Both the position numbers and the translations under genes were made by a program. Positions 12,380 through 62,756 of a stretch of 64,000 bases of DNA are shown piece after piece (the first letter of the stretch is position 1; every line of letters starts with the position of its first letter). This DNA comes from a virus. The stretch lies in the IMG/VR virus record IMGVR_UViG_3300034524_000090, positions 1 through 64,000 of that record. One strand, given 5' to 3'. The notes beneath the pieces were generated by a model that was not told where the DNA came from, searched no databases, and worked only from the letters and a program-made list of their open reading frames with translations.

Positions 12380-12712
12380 TTGAGTTTTTGTCATTATAAC
12401 ATATATGCCGCAAAAGATTTAAAAATATTGTGTCAATATGTTGTAAGTTTGGCTGGTATGCATCAAATAGCTGATTGTGCTGTTACGGTTATTGATGGTG
12501 ATAATTCTGGTAGTAGTTGTTTGATATGTATTGTGCCTTTACAAGAGTCACATTTGTCGGTACACACTTGGCCCGAATTAAGATATGTTTCTGCTGATTT
12601 GTATACTTGTGGTGATTATCAAAGGGGCTATATGGCGTTTAAATATTTAGTTTCTTGTTTTCAGGCAGAAAAGGTCAATATACAAGAAATAGAACGTGTT
12701 GCTCATGTTTAA
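12380..12712 (+). CDS. S-adenosylmethionine decarboxylase-like protein (SpeD paralogue 1), 5' end damaged
   Basis: Members of this family self-cleave to form a pyruvoyl group and decarboxylate S-adenosylmethionine for spermidine synthesis; some relatives act on ornithine or arginine instead. The visible frame from TTG has 110 residues and keeps the processing site LQESHLSVHTWPE, where cleavage would fall between Glu56 and Ser57, the catalytic His62 and Cys77 in LYTCGDY, with the same spacing as in the copy at 62385-62756. TTG lacks a ribosome binding site; the true N-terminus appears to be encoded upstream across a one-base frame disruption. It sits oddly among head genes, between portal and prohead protease. 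Confidence 0.75.
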   Translation: MSFCHYNIYAAKDLKILCQYVVSLAGMHQIADCAVTVIDGDNSGSSCLICIVPLQESHLSVHTWPELRYVSADLYTCGDYQRGYMAFKYLVSCFQAEKVNIQEIERVAHV

Positions 12713-47606: not shown

Positions 47607-47635
47607 TTGACAAATTGGTAGACATAATCTATAAT
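47607..47635 (+). promoter_or_regulatory. perfect consensus sigma-A promoter of the replication genes
   Basis: TTGACA (47607-47612), a 17-nt spacer and TATAAT (47630-47635) precede the 91-residue gene and probably drive the early replication genes. Confidence 0.9.
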
Positions 47636-47667
47636 TAGTAGCGAAGCTAAATGCTTCGCTACTAATT
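47633..47667 (+). promoter_or_regulatory. operator-like dyad overlapping the -10 box
   Basis: A perfect inverted repeat with 15-bp arms, core TAGTAGCGAAGC and GCTTCGCTACTA around TAAAT, starts inside the TATAAT and covers the start of transcription. A repressor bound here would block the promoter; alternatively it is a 5' mRNA hairpin. A related dyad overlaps the promoter near 61504-61540. Confidence 0.7.
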
Positions 47668-47683
47668 TCAAGGAGGTATTTTT

Positions 47684-47959
47684 GTGGATTGTTTAGAAAA
47701 AGCTTTGGGAGTTGTAAAAGAAATAGCTATGAAGAATGAAGAATTAGAGAGTTATAATAATGAATTAGAGCAACGTATTGATGAATTAAGACGTTTAAAA
47801 GATGATTATCAACATCTGCTTTGTTTTTTTAAATACCTTGTTAAAAAGAATGGTGGTGTAGTACAAATTCCTGAGTTAGCTTACTTAGATCCTGTTAGAG
47901 ACTTATATATGAGTTATAATCCTAGTAGTTCGTCTTATATATTTAGAGTAAATAATTGA
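47684..47959 (+). CDS. hypothetical coiled-coil protein
   Basis: GTG start behind AAGGAGG. 91 residues, with a coiled coil at about 12-45 (ELESYNNELEQRIDELRRLK) and a Tyr/Ser-rich end. First gene after the consensus promoter, so probably early. Function unknown. Confidence 0.6.
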   Translation: MDCLEKALGVVKEIAMKNEELESYNNELEQRIDELRRLKDDYQHLLCFFKYLVKKNGGVVQIPELAYLDPVRDLYMSYNPSSSSYIFRVNN

Positions 47960-47975
47960 TTAGGGAGGTATTATT

Positions 47976-48422
47976 TTGAGATTTTATTCTGAGGATTTAA
48001 TTAATCTTATTGGTAATTTTGAATTGTATATGTTGGGTTTTTTAGTATCTCAAACACTACAACAAAAAAGCAATGAAATTACAATAACAACAGATCAATA
48101 TCTTAATATGGAAATTAGAGATATTGTGACCGACAAAATTTTAGGCTATGAAGATAACAGCCATGAAAGTCTAGAATTTATGCTAAACATAATGGTATCT
48201 CTGGAATCAATGGGCTTATTAACTTTTGCGGTAGATTATGATAAAACTATGCATGTTAAGTTAAATCCCCAGGTATTCCAATATTTTATTACTGTTCCTG
48301 ATGAAGTTTTACATGACATAATTTTAGGCGATCAAAAAATAACAGATGAGAGACAAGCATTAGGCGAAGACGAAGAAAATATAGTACAATCTTCCTGCAA
48401 GGTGATACCTTTTCCAAAATGA
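47976..48422 (+). CDS. hypothetical early protein
   Basis: TTG start after AGGGAGGT. 148 residues, acidic, mostly helical, with DLINLIGNFELYMLGFLVSQ at the start. No family recognised. Its stop overlaps the nuclease-like gene. Confidence 0.55.
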   Translation: MRFYSEDLINLIGNFELYMLGFLVSQTLQQKSNEITITTDQYLNMEIRDIVTDKILGYEDNSHESLEFMLNIMVSLESMGLLTFAVDYDKTMHVKLNPQVFQYFITVPDEVLHDIILGDQKITDERQALGEDEENIVQSSCKVIPFPK

Positions 48423-48772
48423 GAAGTGGTTTGCAGGCTCATATTTTTTCCTTATTAAAAGAATTATTCCCTAATGCCCGTATACGTTGTGAACATTTAA
48501 TTAAATATAAAGGGCAAAATTTATATCTGGATTTTTTTATTCCTTTTTTGAATGTTGCTATTGAAGTTGACGGCAGACAACATGATGAGTACAACGATTT
48601 TTTTTATAATAGTTTTTTGCAGTATTATGAGGCGTATAGAAGAGATCGCCTAAAAGAAGAGTGGGCCGAAAAAAACAATGTAGCTTTGATAAGGATTAAG
48701 GAGCATGAGGTTTGCAAAGTAACCAAAGAACAATTATGGGAGAGGATAGTTGATGCCCGAAAAGAATACTGA
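48419..48772 (+). CDS. Vsr/DUF559-like PD-(D/E)XK nuclease
   Basis: 117 residues: ARIRCEHLIKYKGQNLYLDF with an acidic active-site Asp, then NVAIEVDGRQHDEYNDFFY giving the E-x-D/G core and RRDRLKEEWAEKNNVALIRI, the layout of small Vsr-like endonucleases. It could nick DNA in recombination or repair. It lies directly before the RecA-like gene, with overlapping ends. Confidence 0.72.
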   Translation: MRSGLQAHIFSLLKELFPNARIRCEHLIKYKGQNLYLDFFIPFLNVAIEVDGRQHDEYNDFFYNSFLQYYEAYRRDRLKEEWAEKNNVALIRIKEHEVCKVTKEQLWERIVDARKEY

Positions 48773-49829
48773 GCTAGATGTTCTTTTAAAAGAGGTTAAT
48801 AGGATTTTAGAACAAGATGAACAATTCTTTTTGGCTTCTAAACAGCCAGAAGGAACTACAGTACGTGTTATCCCAACTGGCTCTTTTAGTTTGGATATTG
48901 CTCTAGGCATTGGCGGTTGGCCTGTTGGGTGTTTTAATGAGCTATATGGACAAGAATCAGTTGGCAAAAGTTTTTTGGCCCTTATGTCCATTAAAGAAGC
49001 GCAAAAACTTTTTCCTGATAAATTTGCCCTTTACATTGATGCCGAACAGTCTTTAAATCCTCAATTAGCCCAACAGCTAGGCGTAAATCTTGATCGGTTG
49101 CTTATCAGCCGTACTAACAGTGCCAGAAAAGCATTTGGGTCATTGACCAAATGGTTAGAAAGTGGCGCAGTTAGTTTTGTTGTAGTGGATTCAATAGCGT
49201 CTTTGATAACGGAGAATGAAGAAGATGAGCAAGAAAATGTGGAAAAAGCCCAGGTGGGTTCTTTAGCTAGAGTTATGAATCAGGTAGCTAGAAAATTAAC
49301 TGCTTTGGTGGCACGTTCTGGTGCTACTGTGTTGTTATTGAATCAAATCCGTGAAAAGATCAATATGGGTTACGGCAGTAGTGATGTTACAACTCCAGGC
49401 GGCCATGCTTTACTCCATTCGGTATCGACAAGGGTATTTTTAAACTTTGCTAGCAGTACAAATACTATCAATGATAAACCTGTTTTTGTGCCACGTCAGA
49501 GTAAGCCTTTTTATTATAATGCCCAAGGAAAGGTTATTGGGGCTAGGATACATGCCGTAGTTAAGAAGAATAAAAAAGGGCCTTCTTTGGGGCAAGCGTT
49601 TTATGATGCTTACTGGCAAAAAGGCATAGATCGTGCAGGTGAAATAATTGATTTAGGGGTTTTTTATGAACTGCTTGGCTTACACAATGGCTGGTATTCC
49701 TACAAAGGTCAAAAATTTGCTCATGGACGTGAAAATGCTATTAAAAAACTACAGGATGATCCAGAATTTGCCGCTGAATTAGAAAGCCAAATAAAAGAAA
49801 TTGCTGGCATTATCAATAAGGAGGATTAA
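48753..49829 (+). CDS. RecA/UvsX-like recombinase
   Basis: Forms filaments on single-stranded DNA and drives strand exchange in phage recombination-dependent replication. From ATG at 48753 (GGGAGAGG upstream) it has 358 residues: GSFSLDIALGIGGWPVG, Walker A YGQESVGKSFL (about 65-75), Walker B VSFVVVDSIASL, ATVLLLNQIREKI as loop 2 region and TTPGGHALLHSVSTRVFL, all hallmarks of RecA. It overlaps the nuclease-like gene. Confidence 0.92.
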   Translation: MPEKNTELDVLLKEVNRILEQDEQFFLASKQPEGTTVRVIPTGSFSLDIALGIGGWPVGCFNELYGQESVGKSFLALMSIKEAQKLFPDKFALYIDAEQSLNPQLAQQLGVNLDRLLISRTNSARKAFGSLTKWLESGAVSFVVVDSIASLITENEEDEQENVEKAQVGSLARVMNQVARKLTALVARSGATVLLLNQIREKINMGYGSSDVTTPGGHALLHSVSTRVFLNFASSTNTINDKPVFVPRQSKPFYYNAQGKVIGARIHAVVKKNKKGPSLGQAFYDAYWQKGIDRAGEIIDLGVFYELLGLHNGWYSYKGQKFAHGRENAIKKLQDDPEFAAELESQIKEIAGIINKED

Positions 49830-49834
49830 TTGTT

Positions 49835-50284
49835 GTGTCGCTAAAGAAGACAATAGAGATATTACAGAATCTAGGTATCCATATTTTTTCTTTTGACGAA
49901 ACATTTAAAGATACTGTTACAATGTCTATTGATGATTTAGACGATCTTGATGTTGTTACTATGTCTAAGTATATTTACATTTTAGCTCAATATATTACTT
50001 ATCTATTCCAGCAACGTAATTTTATTAAAATTAAAGAGGAGCAACTACAGAAGAAATATGAGGCTGTGTTAGCTTCTCTTATTCCCAAACAGCAGGCTAA
50101 AACCTTAAAGGAAAAACGGATGTTGGCGGCTAATACCCAAGAAGCCCAAGAAATTGAAAAACAACTTAATGAAGTTATGGCATTAAGAAAAAGTCTAGAA
50201 AATATCCCTGAAGGCTATATTGAAATATTAAATGCCTTAAAAAGGTATCATGAGACGTTGTTGAAACTCGGAGGTAAAAATTAA
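49835..50284 (+). CDS. hypothetical helical protein between recombinase and helicase
   Basis: GTG start. 149 residues, largely helical, with a coiled coil around LKEKRMLAANTQEAQEIEKQ. Position suggests a replication accessory such as a helicase loader or mediator, without motif support. Confidence 0.5.
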   Translation: MSLKKTIEILQNLGIHIFSFDETFKDTVTMSIDDLDDLDVVTMSKYIYILAQYITYLFQQRNFIKIKEEQLQKKYEAVLASLIPKQQAKTLKEKRMLAANTQEAQEIEKQLNEVMALRKSLENIPEGYIEILNALKRYHETLLKLGGKN

Positions 50285-50286
50285 GT

Positions 50287-51642
50287 ATGGCTAAAATTGC
50301 GCCAGAACAACTTAGTCAATTGTCAGATGTGGCGGCTGAAAGGTCTATTTTGTCTATATTATTACATCATCAAGATTTAATGTATGAAGTTTTTGCTAAG
50401 ATTACTCCTGATGATTTTTATAATATCGGCAATCGTATAATTGCCAGGATTATTAAGTTATATTTTCTAGAAAAATCTACGGTAAAAAAGTTTAATATAG
50501 AAGTTCTGTCAGATATTTTAATCCAGGAAAACCTTTTAAGTAAAATTGGGGGTCAAGAATATCTAGAGGCTTTAAGTATCTTAGATATTCCCCAAGAAAA
50601 TCTTGATTATTATATTAAACGTGTTAAGTTTTGTTCTATGCGGCGTAAACTTTTGCAGGCAATTAAGGATATAGAAGAGGATCTATTTGATATAGAGGAT
50701 GTCGAAAATATAAATGATTTTTTTGCGGCTCAAGAAAATAAAGTACGAGAAGTGTTGTTAGAAAATACTCTTACTGAAGATGTTTATAATTTAACTGATG
50801 CGGCTACTATTTTAGAACAAGAAACAAGACATATAGTTATTCCTACTCTCTTTCCTGCTCTTGATAAAGAGTTGGGTGGCGGTCTTGAAGATGGTAAATT
50901 GTATGTGATAGCGGCTCGTTCTAAGGGTTTTAAATCTACTACTCTCTTAAATTTTGCCGCCAATATAGGTGTTAAACAAAATATTCCTGTTTTATATCTT
51001 GATACAGAAATGGATTCTCGTTCGCAACAACGCCGTTTATTGGCAATGACAGCTAATATTCCTGAAAAACGTTTACGGCAAAAAAATCTTTTAACCAACG
51101 AAGACATACAACGTCTTAATGACACCTTGAATTATCTTCAAGGCAAAAAAATCTATCATAAACTGATACCTAATTTTTCTGTAGAGCAAATTATATCTTA
51201 TGCTCGGCGGTACTGTTTACAAGAAGGTATTAAACTGTTAATTTTTGATTATATTAAAATGCCTAACGGCAATACTAATTTACAGGAACGTCAATTATTA
51301 GGCGTTATTACTAGCACTTTAAAAGATCTTGCTTCTGAATTAAGAATACCAGTTTTGACAGCCTGCCAACTTAACAGACAGGCTGTAGGTAAAGATAGTT
51401 ACAATGAAACATATATTGCTGAAAGTGACCGTATCCTTTGGTTTACTGATTATCTTTTTTACCAAAGACGTAAAACTGAAGAAGAAATTGAAGAACATGG
51501 CCGTGAAAATGGTACTTTGGTTATAGAAGCTGGCCCTTGCAGGCATCAATGTAATTATATTGGCTGGTTTAATATAGAACCTTCATTGAGATTAACTGAA
51601 ATTAAAAATATTGATTTAAGTTTAGATGCCCTATTTGATTAA
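50287..51642 (+). CDS. DnaB-like replicative helicase
   Basis: 451 residues. The N-terminal helical domain (DVAAERSILSILLHHQDLMY) and LGGGLEDGKLYVIAARSKGF followed by KSTTLLNF match DnaB-type helicases; Walker B is IKLLIFDYIKM and the conserved LTACQLNRQAVG and EAGPCRHQ segments follow. The Walker A reads AARSKGFKST, with Phe where a Gly normally precedes the Lys, an unusual variant. It unwinds DNA at the fork and works with the primase encoded next. Overlap is minimal, 11 nt spacing to the next start. Confidence 0.87.
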   Translation: MAKIAPEQLSQLSDVAAERSILSILLHHQDLMYEVFAKITPDDFYNIGNRIIARIIKLYFLEKSTVKKFNIEVLSDILIQENLLSKIGGQEYLEALSILDIPQENLDYYIKRVKFCSMRRKLLQAIKDIEEDLFDIEDVENINDFFAAQENKVREVLLENTLTEDVYNLTDAATILEQETRHIVIPTLFPALDKELGGGLEDGKLYVIAARSKGFKSTTLLNFAANIGVKQNIPVLYLDTEMDSRSQQRRLLAMTANIPEKRLRQKNLLTNEDIQRLNDTLNYLQGKKIYHKLIPNFSVEQIISYARRYCLQEGIKLLIFDYIKMPNGNTNLQERQLLGVITSTLKDLASELRIPVLTACQLNRQAVGKDSYNETYIAESDRILWFTDYLFYQRRKTEEEIEEHGRENGTLVIEAGPCRHQCNYIGWFNIEPSLRLTEIKNIDLSLDALFD

Positions 51643-51653
51643 GGATGGGGATT

Positions 51654-52742
51654 ATGGCTAATGTTCATTATTTAGAACTACTGGCCTATATTGAAGAATA
51701 TATTGATGTAGAAAAATTGCTTTATATGTTAGGGGCCAAACACGTTAAAGTCTATGGTAGTAATATTAGGTCTGAGTGCGTGATTCATGGCGGTGATAAT
51801 GTTTTAGCTTTTAGTTATGATTTAAATAAGAAGGTCTGGAGTTGTTTTTCTAATAATTGTGGTGAAGGTTATAGGCGTAATCTTTATGATTTAGTATATC
51901 TTTATTTGTTAAAACAAAATAGTGCTCCTCCTACTGAGAAAGAGGTTTTTACTCTATTATTACAAGCCACTGATGTAAAAATTGAATTAGATGAGATTGA
52001 GTTTGGCTTTAGTAAGCCCATACAAGATAAGTTTGATAATATTTTATTTGCCACTAGGGTTAAACAACGGTACAATAAAAAATCGACAAAAAATAATTTG
52101 TTGGCTCTTGACGAATCAATAATAAATTGCTACAATATAACTGTTCATCCTTATTTGATAAATCGTGGACTAACACCAGAAACTATCCAGTTTTTCGATT
52201 TAAGATATGCTCCTCAGGGCTTATCTGAAAAAAACACTAAAAATTTTCCAGGGCGAATTATTATCCCAATACGGTCTATAGATAATAAACTCTTGGGTTT
52301 ATCAGGTAGATTGGCTACTGATGATAAAAAAATAATTAAGCAGTACAGTAAATATAAGCATTTATATTCGTTTCCACGTAATTCTGTTTTGTATAATGCA
52401 AATCATGCATTACCCTACATTAAAAAAACGAAAGCAGTTATTTTGGTTGAAGGGTTTTTTGATGTTATAGGTTTATGGCAAAAAGATATTAAAAATGTAG
52501 TTGCGGCAATGGGTAATTCAATAACAATTCAACAGGTTCAAGATTTGTTACCATATTTAAATAAAGTCTATGTATGTTTTGATGGCGATAAAGGAGGGAG
52601 AGATGGGGTTAAAAAGGTTGCTAGGATTTTAGGTAGACTGTGTAGTATTTATAATGTTAGGTTGCCCGAAGGGAAAGATCCAGATGAACTTTCAAAGACT
52701 GAATTAGTACAGAGCATTTTACAAGCAAAGAAAATTATCTAA
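51654..52742 (+). CDS. DnaG-like primase
   Basis: Makes RNA primers. From ATG at 51654 the protein has 362 residues: a zinc-binding domain with Cys42, His45, Cys64 and Cys69 (SECVIHGGDN; SCFSNNCGEG), the RNA polymerase basic region NFPGRIIIPIRSIDNKLLGL with SGR, and a TOPRIM domain with KAVILVEGFFDVIGLW and VYVCFDGDKGGRDG (acidic triad). Ends soon after the TOPRIM, lacking the helicase-binding domain of bacterial DnaG, as usual for phages. ATG at 51645 is an alternative start. Confidence 0.88.
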   Translation: MANVHYLELLAYIEEYIDVEKLLYMLGAKHVKVYGSNIRSECVIHGGDNVLAFSYDLNKKVWSCFSNNCGEGYRRNLYDLVYLYLLKQNSAPPTEKEVFTLLLQATDVKIELDEIEFGFSKPIQDKFDNILFATRVKQRYNKKSTKNNLLALDESIINCYNITVHPYLINRGLTPETIQFFDLRYAPQGLSEKNTKNFPGRIIIPIRSIDNKLLGLSGRLATDDKKIIKQYSKYKHLYSFPRNSVLYNANHALPYIKKTKAVILVEGFFDVIGLWQKDIKNVVAAMGNSITIQQVQDLLPYLNKVYVCFDGDKGGRDGVKKVARILGRLCSIYNVRLPEGKDPDELSKTELVQSILQAKKII

Positions 52743-52755
52743 GGAGGAGTTTATT

Positions 52756-53262
52756 TTGGCTTTTAAATCTAAAAAAATGGCAAGTAAGAAAGGTTACAGT
52801 AAGTCTTTTTCTAGTTCTAAGGATAAAAACAGTTATAAAAAAGTACGTTTAACTGTTTCAGCACTTAACCAATGCGAATTTCAAGGCAATGTTACTGATG
52901 TAAAATATTCTAAGTCGCAAAATGGCCCTATGTTTTCTGGTCGTCTTTTGTTAGATCGTAATAAGTTTGTGTTTGTAAGGGCTTTTGAAGATGAAGCTAG
53001 AGAACTATATAAAGCTAAAGTGAAAGACGGAGATCCCTTGCATGTTATAGCCGAATATAGTCCATTCAGAACACAGGAAGGCAATTATCTTTATCAGTTT
53101 GTAATTCGTGAAATTTTGGATGTGGAAAACAAAAAAAAGGCGAAGAAAAACGTAGATGATTTTGATGATGAGGGTTATGAAGAAGATAGTGATGAAGAAA
53201 TAGAGGATGATGAAGAAGAATTTGAAGACGAAGAAGAGGAGGATGATGATCTATGGAGTTAA
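52756..53262 (+). CDS. single-stranded DNA-binding protein-like, with a long acidic tail
   Basis: TTG start after AAGGAGGAG. 168 residues: a basic start rich in Lys and Ser, an OB-like beta domain (about 34-120; NQCEFQGNVTDVKYSKSQNG; LYQFVIREIL) and a strongly acidic Glu/Asp tail ending DDDLWS. This is the build of SSB proteins, whose acidic tail with a hydrophobic tip recruits replication proteins. Placed between primase and RNR, it fits that role. Assignment is by architecture. Confidence 0.72.
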   Translation: MAFKSKKMASKKGYSKSFSSSKDKNSYKKVRLTVSALNQCEFQGNVTDVKYSKSQNGPMFSGRLLLDRNKFVFVRAFEDEARELYKAKVKDGDPLHVIAEYSPFRTQEGNYLYQFVIREILDVENKKKAKKNVDDFDDEGYEEDSDEEIEDDEEEFEDEEEEDDDLWS

Positions 53263-53510
53263 AAAACTATGCTTTAGTTTTGCATTTTGACAATCAACAG
53301 GAATACAATGTAATGTTTCAAGCACCAGCACTAGAAAATAATCAGATCGATAATATTCTTAATGCGGTTGTCAGAGGTAGCACTAATATTCAAGGTATTG
53401 TTGTTAATCCACAACGGATTTTGTTTGCTCGTATTATGGAAATTCCTAATAAAACCCAGGAGGCAAATGTAGTAGTTGAGGAAGGAAATAAAGAGGATAT
53501 AAAGGGTTGA
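53253..53510 (+). CDS. hypothetical protein after the SSB gene
   Basis: 85 residues; starts MELKNYALVLHFDNQQEYNV inside the end of the SSB-like gene with GAAGAGGAGG upstream. A short beta and helix pattern and a Glu-rich tail. No family recognised. Confidence 0.55.
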   Translation: MELKNYALVLHFDNQQEYNVMFQAPALENNQIDNILNAVVRGSTNIQGIVVNPQRILFARIMEIPNKTQEANVVVEEGNKEDIKG

Positions 53511-53514
53511 TGCT

Positions 53515-54876
53515 ATGTCTGTAGCCTTAGAGCAATTTGTTGTTACCAATGAATCTCCTTATAGCTTTAATGTTAGCCAAATTATTGATCCAGCAACATT
53601 TAATCCAGATAAATGGCTTCCTATTTCTTTAAATTTATTAGGTGCTGATTTTAATTTATCTGTTGTTAATGCTTATAGGGCTGTTGAAACACCTTTAATA
53701 AAAGTTATGACTAAATTGGGTTATTCTGTACTTTTGTCACCAGAACAATCTATAGGTAGTTTAATTTCTACGCCTGCTTTTGTTTGGCGTAAAGCAAAAG
53801 AGTTAATGTGCGGACAATGGCTAATAGTTCAGTTAGGGGGTGGGTCAGGTATAGAAAATACCTGGCCCACAAAAAGAAACACGGTATTAGATATTGATCC
53901 TCCTGATGAAGAATGTAAAATACTCTGGCAGGATTATCCTACAATTTTAACTGTCGAACTTGCTGAATGGCTAGGTTATTTTATGGCTGATGGCTTTATA
54001 ATACGCCAGGAAGATAGCGATCTAGTAGGATTTATTATAGATCTTGCTGATGATGGGCGTATTGAGACACATCTTTTAGGATTAACATATAAGCTTTTTA
54101 AGTTAGGTTCTCCTATTGAAGCAAAAGATGAGCTTATTGGACATGGCATCTATCATGGTCAACGTAGAGCTATTTATTGGCCTACTGCGGGTTTAGGTAA
54201 ATGGTTAGTATTACTGTTAGGTGAAAATCTAAGTCAAATTCCAGTTTGTATTCTTAGGGGTGGTATTGATTATATTCGTGCTTTTTTAAGAGGATTATTT
54301 ACTGCTAAATGTGAACCTGCCTTGGTAAAAGGCATAAGGATTTTTAGTAAGGATTTAAAATTCCTGCAACATATTCAGTCTGTTTTAGCGAGTTTAGGTA
54401 TTATTGCTAGTATCCATACTGGCGTTACCAGACAGGTTCCAACTAATCGAGAATATATTTATTATTTATCAGTAGTCTCAATTAAAAGCAAAAATATTTT
54501 TGCTGATACTATAGGTTTTTTCGATTCTCGCCAGCAGGATAGATTAAAAGAATTACAAAAAAATGGATGGAATAATGATTTTATTGATGTGATTCCATAT
54601 GAAGTTATTGAGACTACTGAACGCACAGTCGATAATAGCATTATTGTTCGTGCTAACGCTAGATCCAAGGTATCAAGCATTTTAGATAAGCACAAAATCA
54701 ATATTATCAATAAATATGCTATTCTGGAGGTGTTAAAACGCAATCAATTTTATGATCAAATAATCTATATAGAGCATTTAAAGTCTAATAATCTTGGATT
54801 AGAGTTTAATTTAGAGCATGGCGATAATATTTTAGTAAATAATTTTATTATACAAATGCCAAATTCAGAAATCTAA
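53515..54876 (+). CDS. free-standing degenerate intein-like protein with LAGLIDADG domain
   Basis: 453 residues with the order of an intein but no host protein around it. Near the N-terminus VETPLIKVMTKLGYSVLLSP and FVWRKAKELMCGQWLIVQ match Hint blocks, with the usual T..H replaced by SPEQ. A LAGLIDADG domain follows: first motif LAEWLGYFMADGFI with its acidic residue, second motif FLRGLFTAKCEP with Lys where the catalytic Asp should be. The end FNLEHGDNILVNNFIIQMPN has the shape of the C-terminal intein block but lacks the penultimate His. Splicing and cutting are probably lost; it may be a domesticated or decaying element between the SSB and cell wall genes. Confidence 0.72.
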   Translation: MSVALEQFVVTNESPYSFNVSQIIDPATFNPDKWLPISLNLLGADFNLSVVNAYRAVETPLIKVMTKLGYSVLLSPEQSIGSLISTPAFVWRKAKELMCGQWLIVQLGGGSGIENTWPTKRNTVLDIDPPDEECKILWQDYPTILTVELAEWLGYFMADGFIIRQEDSDLVGFIIDLADDGRIETHLLGLTYKLFKLGSPIEAKDELIGHGIYHGQRRAIYWPTAGLGKWLVLLLGENLSQIPVCILRGGIDYIRAFLRGLFTAKCEPALVKGIRIFSKDLKFLQHIQSVLASLGIIASIHTGVTRQVPTNREYIYYLSVVSIKSKNIFADTIGFFDSRQQDRLKELQKNGWNNDFIDVIPYEVIETTERTVDNSIIVRANARSKVSSILDKHKINIINKYAILEVLKRNQFYDQIIYIEHLKSNNLGLEFNLEHGDNILVNNFIIQMPNSEI

Positions 54877-54886
54877 AGGAGAGGCA

Positions 54887-55348
54887 ATGCAAAAACTAGG
54901 TAGGATATTTTGGGCCAGTATAGTTTTTATATGTATTATAGTTATTTATCCCAAGCCTATTGAGGTAGAAGTTTTAGCATCAAAATTTCATTATACTTCT
55001 AGTGTTTCTCGTGCAGGAGATAAAATTAACAACCATAATAAAACAATCGAAGTTATTGCAACAGCTTATACTCAGTCAAAAAAAGAAGGCACTTTTGATG
55101 GTATAACATATACGGGACATAAAGTTAGGCGTGGTGTGGTAGCTGTAGATCCTAAAGTTATTCCTTTAGGATCTAAGCTTTGGATTGAGGGGTATGGCTA
55201 TGGCGAAGCCCTGGATACTGGTGGAGCCATAAAAGGTTATCGAATTGATCTTTTTATGGAGTCTAAAAAAGAGGCCCTTCAGTGGGGCCGTAAAAAAGTT
55301 AAAGCAATTATTTTAGAAACTGGAGGAATGTCTAATGGAAGTATTTGA
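54887..55348 (+). CDS. secreted 3D-domain (MltA/RpfB-type) cell wall enzyme
   Basis: 153 residues with an N-terminal membrane anchor or signal peptide (about 6-23, IFWASIVFICIIVIYP) and a 3D domain: IEVIATAYTQSKKEG, GVVAVDPKVIPLGSKLWIEG (outlined), EALDTGGAIKGYRIDLFMES. The three conserved Asp lie in AVDP, LDTGG and RIDLF. Such domains cleave or remodel peptidoglycan, so this is the best endolysin-type candidate here. It overlaps the protease gene by 14 nt. Confidence 0.82.
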   Translation: MQKLGRIFWASIVFICIIVIYPKPIEVEVLASKFHYTSSVSRAGDKINNHNKTIEVIATAYTQSKKEGTFDGITYTGHKVRRGVVAVDPKVIPLGSKLWIEGYGYGEALDTGGAIKGYRIDLFMESKKEALQWGRKKVKAIILETGGMSNGSI

Positions 55349-56441
55349 ACACTGGTATTCATTAAAAAATTATCTTACCACACAAGCTGAAAAAAAAGAA
55401 CCTAAATTGGATGGTTATTTTTTAGGATGTCAACCTTCTGCTCCTGATAAGCGTACTTACCAATTTAGCGTTTTAGCTCAATCTGTTTTACAAGTTCCAA
55501 CAGAATTGCCTGAGAGCTTTACTTCTGAAAATAATTTGCCTGATTGTTTTGAGCAGGGTAGGCGAGGAAGCTGTACTGCAAGCGCTCTTGTCTGGACAGT
55601 AAAGGCTTACCAAGAAGTTTCACAAGCTGATTGGCCCAGTAAAGGCTTATCAGTAGCTTATCTTTATGCTGAAGAGAAGAAAATCGATGGTATGCCTGAT
55701 CAGGAAGGTTCTACTATTTTTGCAGGTTTGAAAGTTTTACAGAAAAAGGGTGTTTGTCTAGAAACTACTCTCTCCTATTCTTCTCTTTTAAATTTGCCAG
55801 CCCCAAAAGTTCCTGCTACTAATGAGGTTATGGATCGGGAGGCTGTAAAATATAAAATCGGAAATTATGCCCAGATATGTGCTTCTAATGATAAAGAACG
55901 CAATGAAAATACAATAAAATTAATTAAACAAGGTATTTATGCTAATGGTGCTGTTGTTGTTGCTGTTGTAGTTGCCGAGAATTTTAACAACTATGACAAA
56001 AACTATATTATACCTTTACCTGAAGGTTATTTATTGGGTTTACATGCGGTTGGCCTTGTAGGATGGGATGATAAAAAACAGGCGTTTAGACTGCGTAATA
56101 GTTGGGGTAAATGGGGAGATAAAGGTTATGCTTGGTTACCTTATGACTTTGTTACTAAGGGTATGGATATTGACGGATATGGTCATATAATGTGGTATCT
56201 TCTAGAAGCTTGGACAGCATTAGATGAAATTGTTATCGATGATGCCAAAGAAATTAAACTTATTCCATATAATACTCGTGCCGTAGTTGATGGAGTTGAA
56301 TATTATGTTGATCAACCACCTATTATTGATCCTACTACGAATAGAACACTTGTACCGATACGGTTTGTCAGTAACCATATGGGCCGTATTGTAAGCTGGA
56401 ATGAAGCTACTAACGAGATTATAATTAAAAAACTTAATTAA
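55335..56441 (+). CDS. papain-like (C1) cysteine protease with a C-terminal stalk domain
   Basis: 368 residues. The catalytic set of papain-type peptidases is complete: Gln74 and Cys80 in FEQGRRGSCTASA, His237 in GLHAVGLVGW and Asn255 in FRLRNSWGKWGDKGYAWLPY. The last ~70 residues are a copper-amine-oxidase N-terminal-like domain (AVVDGVEYYVDQPPI; RTLVPIRFVSNHMGRIVSWN), a wall- or surface-associated module in clostridia, also present in the tape measure. No signal peptide is visible. It may cut wall peptides or host proteins during lysis or entry. Confidence 0.85.
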   Translation: MEVFEHWYSLKNYLTTQAEKKEPKLDGYFLGCQPSAPDKRTYQFSVLAQSVLQVPTELPESFTSENNLPDCFEQGRRGSCTASALVWTVKAYQEVSQADWPSKGLSVAYLYAEEKKIDGMPDQEGSTIFAGLKVLQKKGVCLETTLSYSSLLNLPAPKVPATNEVMDREAVKYKIGNYAQICASNDKERNENTIKLIKQGIYANGAVVVAVVVAENFNNYDKNYIIPLPEGYLLGLHAVGLVGWDDKKQAFRLRNSWGKWGDKGYAWLPYDFVTKGMDIDGYGHIMWYLLEAWTALDEIVIDDAKEIKLIPYNTRAVVDGVEYYVDQPPIIDPTTNRTLVPIRFVSNHMGRIVSWNEATNEIIIKKLN

Positions 56442-56465
56442 GATTAAGTTATAGGTATTACTGGT

Positions 56466-56494
56466 GGCGGGTAGGTAATACCTACCCGCCTTTT
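56466..56494 (+). terminator. Rho-independent terminator before the reductase gene
   Basis: GGCGGGTAGG and CCTACCCGCC form a perfect 10-bp GC-rich stem with a TAATA loop, followed by TTTT. It ends the transcript of the cell wall genes. Confidence 0.88.
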
Positions 56495-56515: not shown

Positions 56516-59500
56516 ATGGATTCTAACGTCTTAGATCTGCTACAAAGGCGTTATTTTCTAAAAGATGAAAATGGTAATCTTATAGAAAATTCTTGGGAAG
56601 AACTTTGCGCTAGAGTTGCCGAAAATATTGCCAGCGCAGAGACTTCTCTTGAAAATAAAGAGCGATATAAAGATTTGTTTTATAAGGCGTTAGTTAATAT
56701 GGATATGCTAGCTTCCAGTCCAGTATTGTTTAATGCCAATACTCCACTACAGCAATTAAGTAGTTGTTTTGTGGGCGAACAACCAATTTTAACTTCTGAA
56801 GGGTTTAAGCTAATTAAAGATATTAAGGTTGGAGATTTAGTTGTTACCCATCAAGGCAGATTACGTTCAGTTTTAAAGACTTCTAAGCGTTATACCGAAG
56901 AGACATTATATACAATTTCGGTTGATAAAATGTATAAAGATACTTTAAAGGTTACTGGTGATCATCCTATATTAGGGATAAAAAGAAAAGATCTTATATG
57001 TAAGCGTGCCCGTAATTTAATCTGCACAGGTAAATTAAATAAACGTTGTTTATCTCAACCTAAACAATATAAACATGATTGTGAAAGACTAGGTGAGCAA
57101 TTATTACCATATTGGATTAAAGCGGAAGATTTAGAAGTAGGCGATTATGTTGTTGTTGGTACTATAAAGGAAACCAAAGATATTGATTATATTCGGATTA
57201 GTGATTTTATACCTTGTGATGTGTATATTAAAGATGGAGACTTTATTAAAGTTGCAGGACGGCCAAATTATGGTAAAGAAATTCCAGATAAAATACAGAT
57301 TGATGAAGATTTTATGTATATTGTTGGCTTATATCTTGGCGATGGTAGTGTAGTTCATAAAGATTATAATGTATCAAGTTGTGTAGGCTTTAGTATTAAT
57401 TCTAATAGGAATGATGTAGTTGATAAAATATGTGATTGTATGTATAGGGTATTTAATCTTAAACCCAATATTCATAATTATCCTGAACAGAATACTATCC
57501 AGGTCAGGTATCATTCCTTAATACTTGGATTATTTTTTGAACAATTATTGGGTTCTTTTTGTGATAAAAAAAGAATTCCTGATTGGATTTTATATTTACC
57601 CGAATCTAAACTAAAAAGTTTATTGGAAGGAATTATGGATAGCGATGGTTATCATTATAAAAATGATGTTTATATTGTCATGTGTAATCGTGACATTATA
57701 GAAAAGTTGTGGCTTATTTTGTTGCGTTTAGGGATATTGGCTAATATAAAAGAATTACCTATTCCTAAAGGTGGCAACAAGACTCCTTACTTGCTTAATT
57801 ATAAAGTAAGTCATAATTCTCAACATATTAAACTTGATGATTATGTACTTTTTAGGGTTAATGATATATCTACAGATATTATATCTGACTATGTTTATAA
57901 CCTTGAAGTAGAAGAAGATAACACATATGTTGCCAATGGGATTGTTGTGCATAATTGTTTTATTATAGATATAGATGACAATATGGAAAGTATAGCAGAG
58001 GCATGGAAAGAAGCGAGTCTAATCTTTAAATCGGGCGGGGGTGTAGGTTTTAACATTAGTTCTTTAAGGCCCAAAGGGGCTTTGGTTAAATCTTCTAATG
58101 GCGAAGCATCAGGCCCTATATCGTTTATGAAGGTATTTAATACTATCGTTGAACAAGTTAAACAGGGTGGTCGTCGAAAAGGTGCAATTAAAGTTGATCT
58201 TAATGTTGAACATCCTGATATAATTGATTTTATCCATTGTAAAGATAATACTTCTGAACTTAATAATATGAATATATCGGTTTCCATTTCTGATGCTTTT
58301 ATGGAAGCTGTTAAAAATAACAAAGATTGGCCTTTAGTGTTTAATAATAAAGTATATAAAGTAGTAAAGGCCCGTGATCTTTGGGATGAAATTATTAAGT
58401 CGGCCTGGGCTACTGGCGAACCTGGATTATCTTTTAGGGATACAATGGATAGGGCTAATCCTAATCCACATTTGGGGCATGTGTGGGCCACAAATCCCTG
58501 CAGTGAGTTTGTTAATATCCCTTATTCAAGTTGTCTAACTGGAGATACTAAAGTATTAACATTAGAAGGTGTTCGAGAAATAAAAGATTTAGTAGGTACA
58601 AGTGGTTTTATTTTAAGTGAAAATAATAAGTTTAATAAGTATCAAAATGTAGTATTTAAAGGCGTAAGGCCAGTTTATGAAATTATATTAGAAGGCAATT
58701 TAAAAATACAGGCAACAAAAGATCATAAATTCTTTACTAATAATGGATGGAAGCCTTTAGAGGAAATTAAAAAGGGAATTAAAATTAAAACTAGATCGGG
58801 TTATCCGTTAGTTAGTATAGAAGATTATGATGAAGAATATGAGATGTATGGATGGATGCATGGTGACGGGTGGTTTACAGAAAATAGTGTTGGCATTTCT
58901 TTTAATGGTAAAGATGGAGATTTTGATGTAAAAGAACGGTTGTTGCCGATATTTCGTTCTGTTTTTGAAGCTAATAATATAAAACCATTAAAAGATGATT
59001 TATGTTCTTTTCAACTTCAGATAACCAATAAAAAGGCAATAAAAAAGTGTGAAGAATTGGGATTTGTTAAAGGTCATGCTGATAGTAAAAGGTTGCCAAT
59101 TAGTTTTTATACTTGGAATATTAAACAACAAATATCGTTTATAAGAGGTTTGTTTACGGCTGATGGGTATATTGGCAAGGGGAAAAATAGGGGTATTATT
59201 TTATGTTCTACTAGTCTTGTTTTACTTGAAGAAGTTCAAAAGTTTTTAGCATCTATTGGTATTCAAAGTAGAATTACTACGGCCTCATTTAAAACTTGTA
59301 AGAGGAAAGATCAGCATAAATTGATAATTAATAAAGAATCATCTTATATATTTTATAATGTTATTGGATTTTCTGGTACAGCAAAAAGAAATAAATTTAG
59401 TAATGAAGTTGTCTCGAAAATATATAAAGACAAAGACTTTTTAGAGGTTATCGATATTAGATATGTTGGCAATAAAAGTGTTTTTGATATTATAGAAGTT

Positions 59501-60916
59501 GAACAAACTAATAGTTTTTATGCCAATGGTTTATTAGTTCATAACTGTAACTTAGCCTCAATTAATCTTGAAAATATGGTTGAAAATGGTGAACTTAATT
59601 GGGAAAAGGTTGAATATTATACAAGACTAACGGTACGCTTTTTGGATGATATGATTGATGTTAATAAATTACCATTGAAAAAGATTGAAGAAGTTACTAA
59701 ACTTATTCGGCCTATAGGTTTGGGTACTATGGGCTATGCCAATATGTTATATAAGTTAGGCATCCCTTATGGCTCCCAAGAAGCTGAAAATCTAACAAAA
59801 TTACTCTATGAATTTATCTATGAGACAGCTCTAGATGAATCTCAAAAGTTGGCTGAAGAAAGAGGTGTTTATCCTGGTTGGAAAGGCTCAGTATGGGAAC
59901 AAAAAGGCATTAAAGTACGTAATGCTAATTTAATGTCGATAGCTCCTAATGGCTCTATTAGTTTTATTGCCCAAACTACAGGTGGTATTGAGCCTGAATT
60001 TGCTTTAGTTTATCAACGAACTACTAACGAAGGGGTTAAATATTTTGTTTGTAATAAGGTCTTTAAGAAGGTATTACAGGAAAATGGTTTGTATTCTGAA
60101 GAACTTTTAAAAGAAATTTTTGAAGCAGGAGGATCAATACAGGAACTAGATTTGCCTCAACAATTAAAAGATATTTTTGTTGTAGCTCATGATCTTGATC
60201 CTTATAAACATCTAAAGACATTGGCTGTAGTACAGAGATATGTCGATATGGCTTGTTCGAAAACTATAAATCTACCCTCCTCTGCTACACCTGACGTGGT
60301 AGGAGCTATTTATATGAAAGCCTGGGAATTGGGCATTAAAGGGGTTACTGTATATAGAGATGGTTGTAGACCCAATCAGGTTTTAGCTACTGGTGCAACT
60401 ACTAAGGTTGAACAAGAAAAAGGTCAGGATAATAATAGTCGTGGTTACATTATTCCTGCTAAACAAAAAGCCAAAGGAATTAGAACTAAACTTTCTACAG
60501 GTTGCGGTTCTTTGTGGCTTTCTGCTTTTGCTGATGAAGATGGTAATATAATTGAAGTGTTTACAGATATTGGCCGTGGTAATTGTATTAGTAACACACA
60601 GGCACTTTCCAGAATGATTAGTCTTGCTTTGAGAGGAGGGATTAAATTAGAAGATATTATTGAGCAGTTACAAAGCGCTTGCACCTGTCCAAGTTATGCT
60701 GTTGCCAAAGCTACAGGTAAAGGAGTTTCTCCTGGCAAGTCTTGTCCTTCTGCTATTGCTGTTGCTTTAAAAGAATTACAAAAAGAATTTAAGCCCAATA
60801 TTGAAAAAGAAACTAAAGTTGTTGTTAAAACTTTATGTCCTCAATGTGGTAATGAATTAGTGTCACAGAGCGGATGTTGGCAATGTAATAACTGTGGTTA
60901 TAGTAAATGTGGTTAA
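56516..60916 (+). CDS. nrdJ: class II (B12-dependent) ribonucleotide reductase with two inteins
   Basis: Makes deoxyribonucleotides for phage replication using adenosylcobalamin. The 1466-residue precursor carries inteins at residues 84-480 and 673-1010; the spliced enzyme would have 731 residues. Extein marks: PVLFNANTPLQQLSS joined to CFIIDIDDNMESIAEAWKEA, KSGGGVGFNISSLRPKG, NPCSEFVNIPYSS joined to CNLASINLENM, the PNGSISFIAQTTGGIEPEF segment and a C-terminal zinc motif with CPQCG and CNNCGYSKC. Cys in NPCSE is the expected radical site, and the two Cys just after the inteins are the expected redox pair. ATG follows AAAGGAGGAGG. Confidence 0.92.
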   Translation: MDSNVLDLLQRRYFLKDENGNLIENSWEELCARVAENIASAETSLENKERYKDLFYKALVNMDMLASSPVLFNANTPLQQLSSCFVGEQPILTSEGFKLIKDIKVGDLVVTHQGRLRSVLKTSKRYTEETLYTISVDKMYKDTLKVTGDHPILGIKRKDLICKRARNLICTGKLNKRCLSQPKQYKHDCERLGEQLLPYWIKAEDLEVGDYVVVGTIKETKDIDYIRISDFIPCDVYIKDGDFIKVAGRPNYGKEIPDKIQIDEDFMYIVGLYLGDGSVVHKDYNVSSCVGFSINSNRNDVVDKICDCMYRVFNLKPNIHNYPEQNTIQVRYHSLILGLFFEQLLGSFCDKKRIPDWILYLPESKLKSLLEGIMDSDGYHYKNDVYIVMCNRDIIEKLWLILLRLGILANIKELPIPKGGNKTPYLLNYKVSHNSQHIKLDDYVLFRVNDISTDIISDYVYNLEVEEDNTYVANGIVVHNCFIIDIDDNMESIAEAWKEASLIFKSGGGVGFNISSLRPKGALVKSSNGEASGPISFMKVFNTIVEQVKQGGRRKGAIKVDLNVEHPDIIDFIHCKDNTSELNNMNISVSISDAFMEAVKNNKDWPLVFNNKVYKVVKARDLWDEIIKSAWATGEPGLSFRDTMDRANPNPHLGHVWATNPCSEFVNIPYSSCLTGDTKVLTLEGVREIKDLVGTSGFILSENNKFNKYQNVVFKGVRPVYEIILEGNLKIQATKDHKFFTNNGWKPLEEIKKGIKIKTRSGYPLVSIEDYDEEYEMYGWMHGDGWFTENSVGISFNGKDGDFDVKERLLPIFRSVFEANNIKPLKDDLCSFQLQITNKKAIKKCEELGFVKGHADSKRLPISFYTWNIKQQISFIRGLFTADGYIGKGKNRGIILCSTSLVLLEEVQKFLASIGIQSRITTASFKTCKRKDQHKLIINKESSYIFYNVIGFSGTAKRNKFSNEVVSKIYKDKDFLEVIDIRYVGNKSVFDIIEVEQTNSFYANGLLVHNCNLASINLENMVENGELNWEKVEYYTRLTVRFLDDMIDVNKLPLKKIEEVTKLIRPIGLGTMGYANMLYKLGIPYGSQEAENLTKLLYEFIYETALDESQKLAEERGVYPGWKGSVWEQKGIKVRNANLMSIAPNGSISFIAQTTGGIEPEFALVYQRTTNEGVKYFVCNKVFKKVLQENGLYSEELLKEIFEAGGSIQELDLPQQLKDIFVVAHDLDPYKHLKTLAVVQRYVDMACSKTINLPSSATPDVVGAIYMKAWELGIKGVTVYRDGCRPNQVLATGATTKVEQEKGQDNNSRGYIIPAKQKAKGIRTKLSTGCGSLWLSAFADEDGNIIEVFTDIGRGNCISNTQALSRMISLALRGGIKLEDIIEQLQSACTCPSYAVAKATGKGVSPGKSCPSAIAVALKELQKEFKPNIEKETKVVVKTLCPQCGNELVSQSGCWQCNNCGYSKCG
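56765..57955 (+). mobile_element. intein 1 with LAGLIDADG endonuclease domain (397 residues)
   Basis: Begins CFVGEQPILTSEGFKLIKDI with Cys1 and the Hint start, has VTGDHPILGIK (block B with T..H), LAGLIDADG-type motifs FMYIVGLYLGDGSVV and SLLEGIMDSDGYHY, and ends YVANGIVVHN followed by Cys+1. All splicing residues (Cys1, His, His-Asn, Cys+1) are present and both endonuclease acids look intact. A long Lys/Arg/Cys-rich insert (KRKDLICKRARNLICTGK) follows block B. Confidence 0.93.
58532..59545 (+). mobile_element. intein 2 with LAGLIDADG endonuclease domain (338 residues)
   Basis: Begins CLTGDTKVLTLEGVREIKDL, has block B QATKDHKFFTNNGWKPLEEI, LAGLIDADG-type motifs MYGWMHGDGWF and FIRGLFTADGYIG, and ends SFYANGLLVHN followed by Cys+1 (CNLASINL). 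All splicing residues are present and both endonuclease motifs keep an acidic residue. Confidence 0.93.
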
Positions 60917-61627: not shown

Positions 61628-62428
61628 ATGCAGTTAAATACAGTTTATAATATGGATTGTAGGCAAGGATTTTGGGAATTAGAAAAAGAAAATTTAAAAT
61701 TTGATCTTATTCTGGCTGATCCGCCTTATTTTTTAGACCGCAGTAAGACTATTAAGTTTAAAAATCGTAAAGATATAAACTCTCCTATTGAGTGGGATAC
61801 TTTTACAAGTGAGGATGAATATTTAAAGTGGACTGCCGATTGGCTAAATGAAGCTATTAATCTTCTTTCTCCTACTGGTCAATTAATTTGTTACTGTCGT
61901 GCTGAGTATATAAGCGATATAATTTCAATGATAAAGCAAAAAATAAACCACAAATGTACTATGTACTATGTAAAAACTAATCCTCCCCCTTCGGTGCGTA
62001 AACGTAATTACGTGTCAACGGTGGAGACTCTTCTTTGGTTCGTTAAAAATTCAACAAAATATACGTTTAATTTTCAACGACAACAAGATATGCGTAATGC
62101 TTTTATATTACCAATCCCAGGAGGCAAAGTAAGAAAGCAATATCCTCACCCTACCATGAAACCTTTACAACTTAGTGAGCATCTTATTAAAGTCCATACT
62201 AATGAAAATGATAATATTTTAATTCCGTTTGCTGGTGTTGGTACTGAATGTGTGGCCGCAAAAAGACTAAATAGGAATTTTGTAGGTTTTGAGATTGACC
62301 CTTATTATTATGAATTATGCCTTAAACGGCTTGGTATTAATAATATTGGTATCAATAATAATACGATAGAAAGGGCTGATACCAATGAACGACAAAAAAA
62401 TCCAACTAGGGAGGCATCTGTTGGTTGA
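61628..62428 (+). CDS. DNA amino-methyltransferase (N6-adenine or N4-cytosine)
   Basis: 266 residues. The catalytic motif FDLILADPPYFL is near the N-terminus (about 25-36), and the SAM-binding motif ILIPFAGVGTECVAAKRLNR then FVGFEIDPYYYELCLKRL near the C-terminus, the beta-group order. A target-recognition part with KTNPPPSVRKRNYVSTVETL lies between. It probably protects phage DNA against restriction, as a second methyltransferase beside the C5 enzyme at 354-1151. Its end overlaps the SpeD gene by 44 nt. Confidence 0.85.
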   Translation: MQLNTVYNMDCRQGFWELEKENLKFDLILADPPYFLDRSKTIKFKNRKDINSPIEWDTFTSEDEYLKWTADWLNEAINLLSPTGQLICYCRAEYISDIISMIKQKINHKCTMYYVKTNPPPSVRKRNYVSTVETLLWFVKNSTKYTFNFQRQQDMRNAFILPIPGGKVRKQYPHPTMKPLQLSEHLIKVHTNENDNILIPFAGVGTECVAAKRLNRNFVGFEIDPYYYELCLKRLGINNIGINNNTIERADTNERQKNPTREASVG

Positions 62429-62756
62429 GGTAGTTTTAAAAGAAGAAAATGCTGATATTCTTGACAACATTAATCAAATTAAAAAGGAATTAATTGAAGC
62501 TGTAAGTTATACGGGCGCAACAATTAAAGATGTTAGTTTTGTAAGATTTGAGCCTCAAGGAGTTAGTGGCGTAATTGTGATTTCTGAATCTCATTTTTCT
62601 GTTCATACTTGGCCTGAATACAATACAGCCGTATTTGACTTTTTTACCTGTGGTAATTGTAATCCTTGGAAAGCCATATCGTATTTAGTTGAATCATTGG
62701 AGGTGAAAGATTTGGTTGTCCATGAAGTGCCGAGGTATATGCCAATAGCTGTTTGA
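62385..62756 (+). CDS. speD: S-adenosylmethionine decarboxylase-like protein (SpeD paralogue 2), intact
   Basis: 123 residues, class 1b size. Starts MNDKKIQLGRHLLVEVVL (the usual LGRH opening), and carries the self-processing site VIVISESHFSVHTWPE, where cleavage between Glu68 and Ser69 makes the pyruvoyl group, the catalytic His74 and Cys89 in DFFTCGNCNPWKA, all in the spacing known for the Thermotoga enzyme (63, 68, 83). Related phage proteins may act on S-adenosylmethionine, ornithine or arginine; the substrate cannot be told from sequence here. It links to polyamines, which condense DNA. Confidence 0.88.
   Translation: MNDKKIQLGRHLLVEVVLKEENADILDNINQIKKELIEAVSYTGATIKDVSFVRFEPQGVSGVIVISESHFSVHTWPEYNTAVFDFFTCGNCNPWKAISYLVESLEVKDLVVHEVPRYMPIAV

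What the first reader, a model, noticed from the sequence alone, without database searches (positions are those of the whole stretch)
53515..54876. Orphan intein-like protein with lost splicing and nuclease residues
A complete gene with start, ribosome site and stop encodes Hint-like blocks and a LAGLIDADG domain but no exteins. The splice His-Asn is Pro-Asn, block B TxxH is SPEQ, and one endonuclease acid is Lys. A free-standing intein-derived protein, comparable in kind to yeast HO, is uncommon; it may have a new role such as DNA binding, or be a fossil.
Basis: partly seen in the sequence, partly recalled or inferred. Interest (0 to 1): 0.78.

Follow-up and report, generated by a model that had tools for sequence, protein, structure and literature searches.

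The report
Phage stand-alone intein that cannot splice
A phage carries, as an ordinary separate gene, a complete former intein that has lost its host protein, all its protein-splicing residues and one of its two DNA-cutting acids, yet still reads and models as an intact protein; the only close parallel found is yeast HO.

Summary
ORF 53515-54876 (+, 453 aa), in a 119.8-kb IMG/VR phage contig, encodes Hint-N, LAGLIDADG and Hint-C domains and no exteins. Residues 2-450 (449 aa) match the full length (430-462 aa) of one intein family: those inserted in NrdJ-type ribonucleotide reductase at QGG|T. Each domain independently matches a profile of 18 such inteins (single-sequence E 1e-9, 2e-27, 8e-9; no shuffle of either Hint part reached its score). 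A model built with relatives has pLDDT 78, pTM 0.86 and finds TliVMA and PI-PfuI. D159 is kept; D265 is Lys. Codon use is normal; neutral decay that far should have left 8 or more stops, and there are none. No stand-alone relative appeared in about 720 genomes or the phage collections. The phage's nrdJ, about 1.6 kb downstream, is empty at QGG. Best reading: a splicing-dead intein kept as a DNA-binding, non-double-strand-cutting protein. Identity is well supported; function is inferred. Comparable in kind to yeast HO/WHO, not a member.

The parts
53515..54876 (+). Stand-alone intein-derived gene, 453 aa, ATG to TAA
   Evidence: codon-position GC 0.45/0.34/0.20 and codon adaptation 0.663, like neighbouring genes
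53501..53506 (+). Shine-Dalgarno-like AAAGGG, 8 nt before the ATG
   Evidence: read from the sequence
53518..53934 (+). Hint-N half (residues 2-140); Ser2 at the Cys1 position
   Evidence: QGG-intein profile E 1.1e-9, 0 of 2000 shuffles reach it; S2 = C1 column
53737..53748 (+). Block B SPEQ (residues 75-78) in place of TxxH
53959..53994 (+). First LAGLIDADG helix LAEWLGYFMADG (149-160); catalytic acid D159 kept
54280..54312 (+). Second LAGLIDADG helix AFLRGLFTAKC (256-266); acid D->K265, next G->C266
54649..54864 (+). Linker and Hint-C half (379-450), with the shared NQFYDQ motif (410-415)
   Evidence: profile E 7.7e-9, 0 of 2000 shuffles reach it; the motif NQFYDQ occurs in L022, L023 and L031
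54853..54861 (+). QMP (447-449) in the register of splice-site His-Asn and the +1 Thr
47607..56490 (+). Putative transcription unit: perfect TTGACA-17-TATAAT (47607-47635), then RecA-like, DnaB, primase, OB/SSB-like, 85-aa, this gene, 3D protein, papain-like protease, terminator (56466-56490)
   Evidence: consensus scan, not proof; gene names; SSB-like by position and acidic tail only
56516..60916 (+). nrdJ with two inteins keeping C1 and HN, after extein residues 83 and 275; the QGG site (junction 58171/58172) is empty and its +1 residue is Arg

Best explanation
The gene is a complete intein, most likely of the NrdJ (class II ribonucleotide reductase) QGG|T type, that became a separate, exteinless gene in a phage replication operon. 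Shown: full-length similarity of all three intein parts, replacement of every splicing residue, loss of one of the two catalytic acids, an intact coding frame, and a confident predicted Hint plus LAGLIDADG fold. Inferred: it can no longer splice or make a normal double-strand cut; the protein has been kept by selection for its LAGLIDADG DNA-binding surface, with the Hint part as scaffold; it binds (and at most nicks) a specific DNA site, probably in phage or host DNA, as a regulator or competitor of homing. My split: exteinless former intein 0.95; cannot splice 0.93; no double-strand cutting 0.8; maintained rather than decaying 0.75; DNA-binding role 0.45.
For: Profile of 18 QGG inteins: 125 bits over the whole protein, every domain significant alone. 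At equal profile depth QGG inteins beat all other tested groups: 1 sequence 68 against 41 (site 415), 44 (site 60), 32 (phage polymerase), 28 (helicase/RecA); 3 sequences 101 against 81 and 51. Without pattern bias, the dozen best hits in 399 Bacillota and 301 Chloroflexota genomes are all QGG-site inteins. Length 449 aa against 430-462. AlphaFold2 with 43 relatives: pLDDT 78, pTM 0.86; PDB matches TliVMA 7e-21, PI-PfuI 2e-19. Catalytic positions 1 of 9 kept against 46 of 94 other QGG-invariant positions, Fisher p 0.037. Neutral simulation to the same catalytic loss: 8 or more stops in every one of 400 runs, mean 18; observed 0. Normal codon usage; frame-shifted readings 0.40 and 0.50 against 0.66.
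Against: No close homologue was found, so dN/dS could not be measured and selection is argued only indirectly. The Fisher test is borderline and the split of sites was chosen knowing the family. Net charge is -7 (LAGLIDADG part +2), so no strongly basic DNA-binding surface is evident, though embedded relatives are similar. No added DNA-binding domain was recognised. The tree leaves the origin open: branch length 3.9; neither the QGG grouping (AU p 0.26) nor a grouping with other phage inteins is rejected. The structure model used an alignment of inteins, so it is not independent of the homology call.
Confidence: 0.45

Rival explanations
1. Fossil: a homing element recently stranded without exteins, no longer useful, still intact only because too little time has passed.
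For: Homing endonuclease genes usually decay and are lost (PMC13405050). Splicing and nuclease residues are gone. No homologue shows maintenance.
Against: The losses are too many for a short time: neutral change enough to alter 8 of 9 catalytic codons gives 8-plus stops in all 400 simulated runs, against none here. Codon usage, SD and start are normal; many structural positions, including all four conserved tryptophans, are kept.
Confidence: 0.25
2. Still an active selfish element: a free-standing nicking homing endonuclease using the remaining D159 site, as phages carry other free-standing homing nucleases.
For: Fold and first catalytic acid kept; free-standing homing genes are common in phages such as T4 (PMC13405050); the same phage carries a LAGLIDADG gene inside its split dnaE.
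Against: D265->K with G266->C removes the second acid; no direct repeats or target-site signature flank the gene; no second copy of the element was found.
Confidence: 0.2
3. RNA-splicing helper (maturase) for the phage's own interrupted dnaE, as some LAGLIDADG proteins are.
For: dnaE is split exactly within a conserved motif by about 1 kb holding a LAGLIDADG ORF; maturase moonlighting of LAGLIDADG proteins is known (PMC13405050).
Against: The dnaE insertion has its own LAGLIDADG protein; it was not recognised by Rfam as an intron; no sequence feature of this gene points to RNA.
Confidence: 0.05
4. Not orphan: a split or trans-splicing intein, or an intein whose extein is hidden by frameshift or assembly error.
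For: Flanking genes are close (4 nt upstream, 10 nt downstream).
Against: The flanking genes are out of frame or complete and not NrdJ-like; block B, block F and HN are all replaced, so splicing would fail anyway; D->K needs two base changes.
Confidence: 0.03

Closest known systems
NrdJ inteins at the QGG|T site (for example loci L022, L023, L101, L102, L127)
   Same: Same three-part layout and length (430-462 aa); significant match over Hint-N, LAGLIDADG and Hint-C; shared NQFYDQ and D(I/V)IP motifs
   Different: Those sit inside NrdJ with C1, TxxH, HN and two Asp; this is a separate gene with all splicing positions changed and one Asp turned to Lys; identity only about 24%
Yeast HO and WHO proteins (PMC7282813)
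   Same: Stand-alone, exteinless, intein-derived proteins that do not splice; both lost block G
   Different: HO/WHO carry a C-terminal zinc finger and an active nuclease and are related to the VDE intein; this has no extra domain, lacks one catalytic acid and is related to bacterial/archaeal inteins
PI-PfuI (P. furiosus intein-encoded endonuclease, from ribonucleotide reductase; 1dq3) and TliVMA intein (7qss)
   Same: Best solved-structure matches, whole fold
   Different: Embedded inteins with splicing domains; PI-PfuI is an active endonuclease
WhiA
   Same: A LAGLIDADG-derived bacterial DNA-binding regulator; the LAGLIDADG part matches its structure weakly (8dy7)
   Different: WhiA has a helix-turn-helix domain and no Hint domain

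Membership tests
Intein (class 1) | Hint fold, N and C halves | tested here: met
Intein (class 1) | N-terminal Cys/Ser nucleophile and block B TxxH | tested here: not met
   Ser2 possible in place of Cys1, but TxxH is SPEQ
Intein (class 1) | C-terminal His-Asn followed by Cys/Ser/Thr | tested here: not met
   QM then P in register
Intein (class 1) | Insertion in frame in a host protein (exteins) | tested here: not met
   own start and stop; one Met before, Ser-Glu-Ile after Asn450
Intein (class 1) | Self-splicing | not testable with these tools
   predicted absent from the residues
LAGLIDADG (DOD) homing endonuclease | Two LAGLIDADG helices and fold | tested here: met
LAGLIDADG (DOD) homing endonuclease | One catalytic acid per helix | tested here: not met
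   D159 kept, D265->K
LAGLIDADG (DOD) homing endonuclease | Site-specific double-strand cutting and homing | not testable with these tools
   needs purified protein and DNA substrates
HO/WHO exteinless intein proteins | Stand-alone, exteinless, block G lost | tested here: met
   definition from PMC7282813
HO/WHO exteinless intein proteins | C-terminal zinc finger fused to the intein | tested here: not met
   protein ends at the intein end; no such Pfam domain
NrdJ QGG-site intein lineage | Groups with QGG inteins in a tree | tested here: inconclusive
   best profile score at every depth, but long branch; AU p 0.255
WhiA | Helix-turn-helix plus LAGLIDADG, no Hint | tested here: not met

The most novel reading that the evidence does not exclude
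A prokaryotic-virus counterpart of yeast HO: an intein whole in fold that left its host protein and was taken over as a phage DNA-binding or single-strand-nicking protein in the replication operon, possibly guarding or regulating nrdJ or other DNA against homing by related inteins.
Probability: 0.3. Interest if true: 0.78.

Novelty: new variant of a known kind. Interest (0 to 1): 0.55.

Why it matters
Inteins are usually either active selfish elements or lost; yeast HO/WHO is the only stand-alone exteinless case met in the papers searched. A phage example with its likely parent family identified (NrdJ QGG site) and the matching site present but empty about 3.3 kb downstream, in the nrdJ gene that starts 1.6 kb away, makes the question of how an intein becomes an ordinary gene testable by simple biochemistry.

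Tried and rejected
Close relatives by peptide patterns in viral and genome collections: none; the single viral hit L003 is spurious. Sister phages through RecA-like, primase and terminase genes: none in viral contigs; only distant phages in GenBank, so no synteny or dN/dS test. Single-sequence AlphaFold2 was useless (pLDDT 32) and was replaced by a run with 43 intein relatives. Tree placement: unresolved because of the long branch; own NrdJ inteins attract each other and were left out of a second tree. Rfam around the gene and at the dnaE split: nothing credible. Flanking direct repeats: only short chance matches. Search for stand-alone QGG-type inteins in IMG/VR: 34 loci, no complete free-standing gene recognised; two short frames (L171, L172) run off a contig end. 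All hits in the genome searches lie in frames of about 680 aa or longer.

Full report
What is there. The window is the first 64 kb of a 119,804-base virus record. ORF 53515-54876 has its own SD-like site, ATG and stop, and lies in another frame than the preceding 85-aa gene. Its codon-position GC (0.45/0.34/0.20) and codon adaptation (0.663) are those of neighbouring phage genes, while the other two frames give 0.40 and 0.50. It lies in a putative unit that starts at a perfect sigma-70-type consensus (47607-47635) and ends at an 11-bp terminator-like hairpin (56466-56490), with RecA-like, DnaB, primase and SSB-like genes before it and 3D-domain and papain-like protease genes after it (consensus matches are not proof).

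Domains. Pfam gives LAGLIDADG_3 (6.6e-11) and only a sub-threshold Intein_splicing match (0.015); NCBIfam hits are the intein parts of RFC and ribonucleotide reductase models. Phage-collection matches are intein LAGLIDADG regions at 23-27% identity. The Hint halves were established separately: a profile of 18 NrdJ inteins inserted at QGG|T matches residues 1-140 (23.7 bits, E 1.1e-9 for one sequence), 141-364 (82.4 bits) and 365-453 (21.0 bits, 7.7e-9); the best of 2000 shuffles reached 2.5 and 10.6 bits for the two Hint parts.

Origin. A profile-based genome scan returned 79 loci, nearly all ribonucleotide reductase inteins. Its pattern came from an alignment with two such inteins, so this alone is biased. 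Two searches of whole genomes with the bare protein (399 Bacillota, 301 Chloroflexota) carry no such bias, and there too the top dozen hits are QGG-site inteins. With profiles built at equal depth, QGG inteins score highest at 1, 2 and 3 sequences. The remnant, from Ser2 to Asn450, is 449 aa against 430-462 aa for QGG inteins. A maximum-likelihood tree cannot settle it: the branch is 3.9 changes per site long, and neither grouping with QGG inteins (AU p 0.255), nor with all these RNR inteins (0.276), nor with site-415 inteins (0.161) is rejected; the best tree puts it beside phage polymerase, helicase and RecA inteins with modest support. I therefore call the QGG origin likely, not shown.

The parent site. 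The phage's own nrdJ (56516-60916) carries two inteins with Cys1 and His-Asn intact, after extein residues 83 and 275. At the QGG site it is empty and reads QGG-RRKGA where intein-bearing homologues read QGG-TRRGA, so the +1 nucleophile is absent. Whether the stand-alone gene came from this nrdJ or arrived from elsewhere is unknown.

Residues. Of 103 positions conserved in at least 17 of 18 QGG inteins, 47 are kept. Splicing positions: C1->S2, T->S75, H->Q78, D->E430, H->Q447, N->M448, and the +1 T->P449: none kept. Nuclease: first acid D159 kept; second acid D->K265, with the following G->C; a conserved Lys before the second helix is not kept in the alignment (weakly aligned region). Catalytic 1 of 9 kept against 46 of 94 others, Fisher p 0.037, borderline.

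Fold. With 43 inteins from fetched loci as alignment, AlphaFold2 gives pLDDT 78 and pTM 0.86. Foldseek against the PDB gives TliVMA intein 7.3e-21, PI-PfuI (a ribonucleotide reductase intein, from my own knowledge) 1.8e-19, then PI-SceI, I-DmoI, and weakly WhiA. The alignment lends its fold to the model, so the independent support is the shuffle-tested profile scores. Several viral proteins named homing endonuclease, of 358-607 aa, are in the viral list; whether any is exteinless was not checked.

Maintained or fossil. If the catalytic codons had changed by neutral drift after splicing was lost, reaching 8 of 9 changed would have put at least 8 (mean 18) stop codons in the frame in every one of 400 simulations; there are none. 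The argument assumes those changes were neutral and came after the exteins were lost. No sister sequence was available for dN/dS.

How it may work. Best guess: the LAGLIDADG domain still binds DNA and no longer makes a double-strand break; a nick from the D159 site is possible. Most similar in kind are HO and WHO (stand-alone, exteinless, block G lost; PMC7282813) and, for a LAGLIDADG protein turned regulator, WhiA. It is a member of neither: no zinc finger, no helix-turn-helix. By definition it is no longer an intein. The searches of the open-licence paper library for stand-alone or exteinless inteins found only HO/WHO; that library is partial, so 'first in a prokaryotic virus' is not claimed as fact.

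Noticed in passing
window 63934 to genome 65007 (L012; window end and L004 1-1010): dnaE (DNA polymerase III alpha) is split exactly inside the conserved LLFER|FLNP motif by about 1.03 kb holding a LAGLIDADG ORF (L004 154-924) and about 250 nt of structured sequence with GTGTAGAGACTAGAG; it looks like a group I intron, but Rfam gave no match.
   Followed up: partly
window 56516-60916: Phage nrdJ carries two inteins with intact Cys1 and His-Asn, at extein residues 83 and 275.
   Followed up: partly
window 12380-12712 and 62385-62756: Two phage-encoded S-adenosylmethionine decarboxylase (SpeD) genes, both above the Pfam cut-off (E 3e-19 and 1e-32).
   Followed up: no
window 47607-47635 and 56466-56490: A perfect 12/12 sigma-70-type promoter consensus and an 11-bp terminator-like hairpin bracket the replication gene block.
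   Followed up: no
window 55335-56441: Phage gene joining a papain-like cysteine protease with a copper amine oxidase N-terminal-type domain, next to a 3D-domain protein.
   Followed up: no
BFVD entries A0A1V0SJ38 (607 aa, Klosneuvirus) and A0A481YWE8 (358 aa, Marseillevirus LCMAC201): Short viral proteins named homing endonuclease that match the whole model; they may be further stand-alone intein-like proteins.
   Followed up: no
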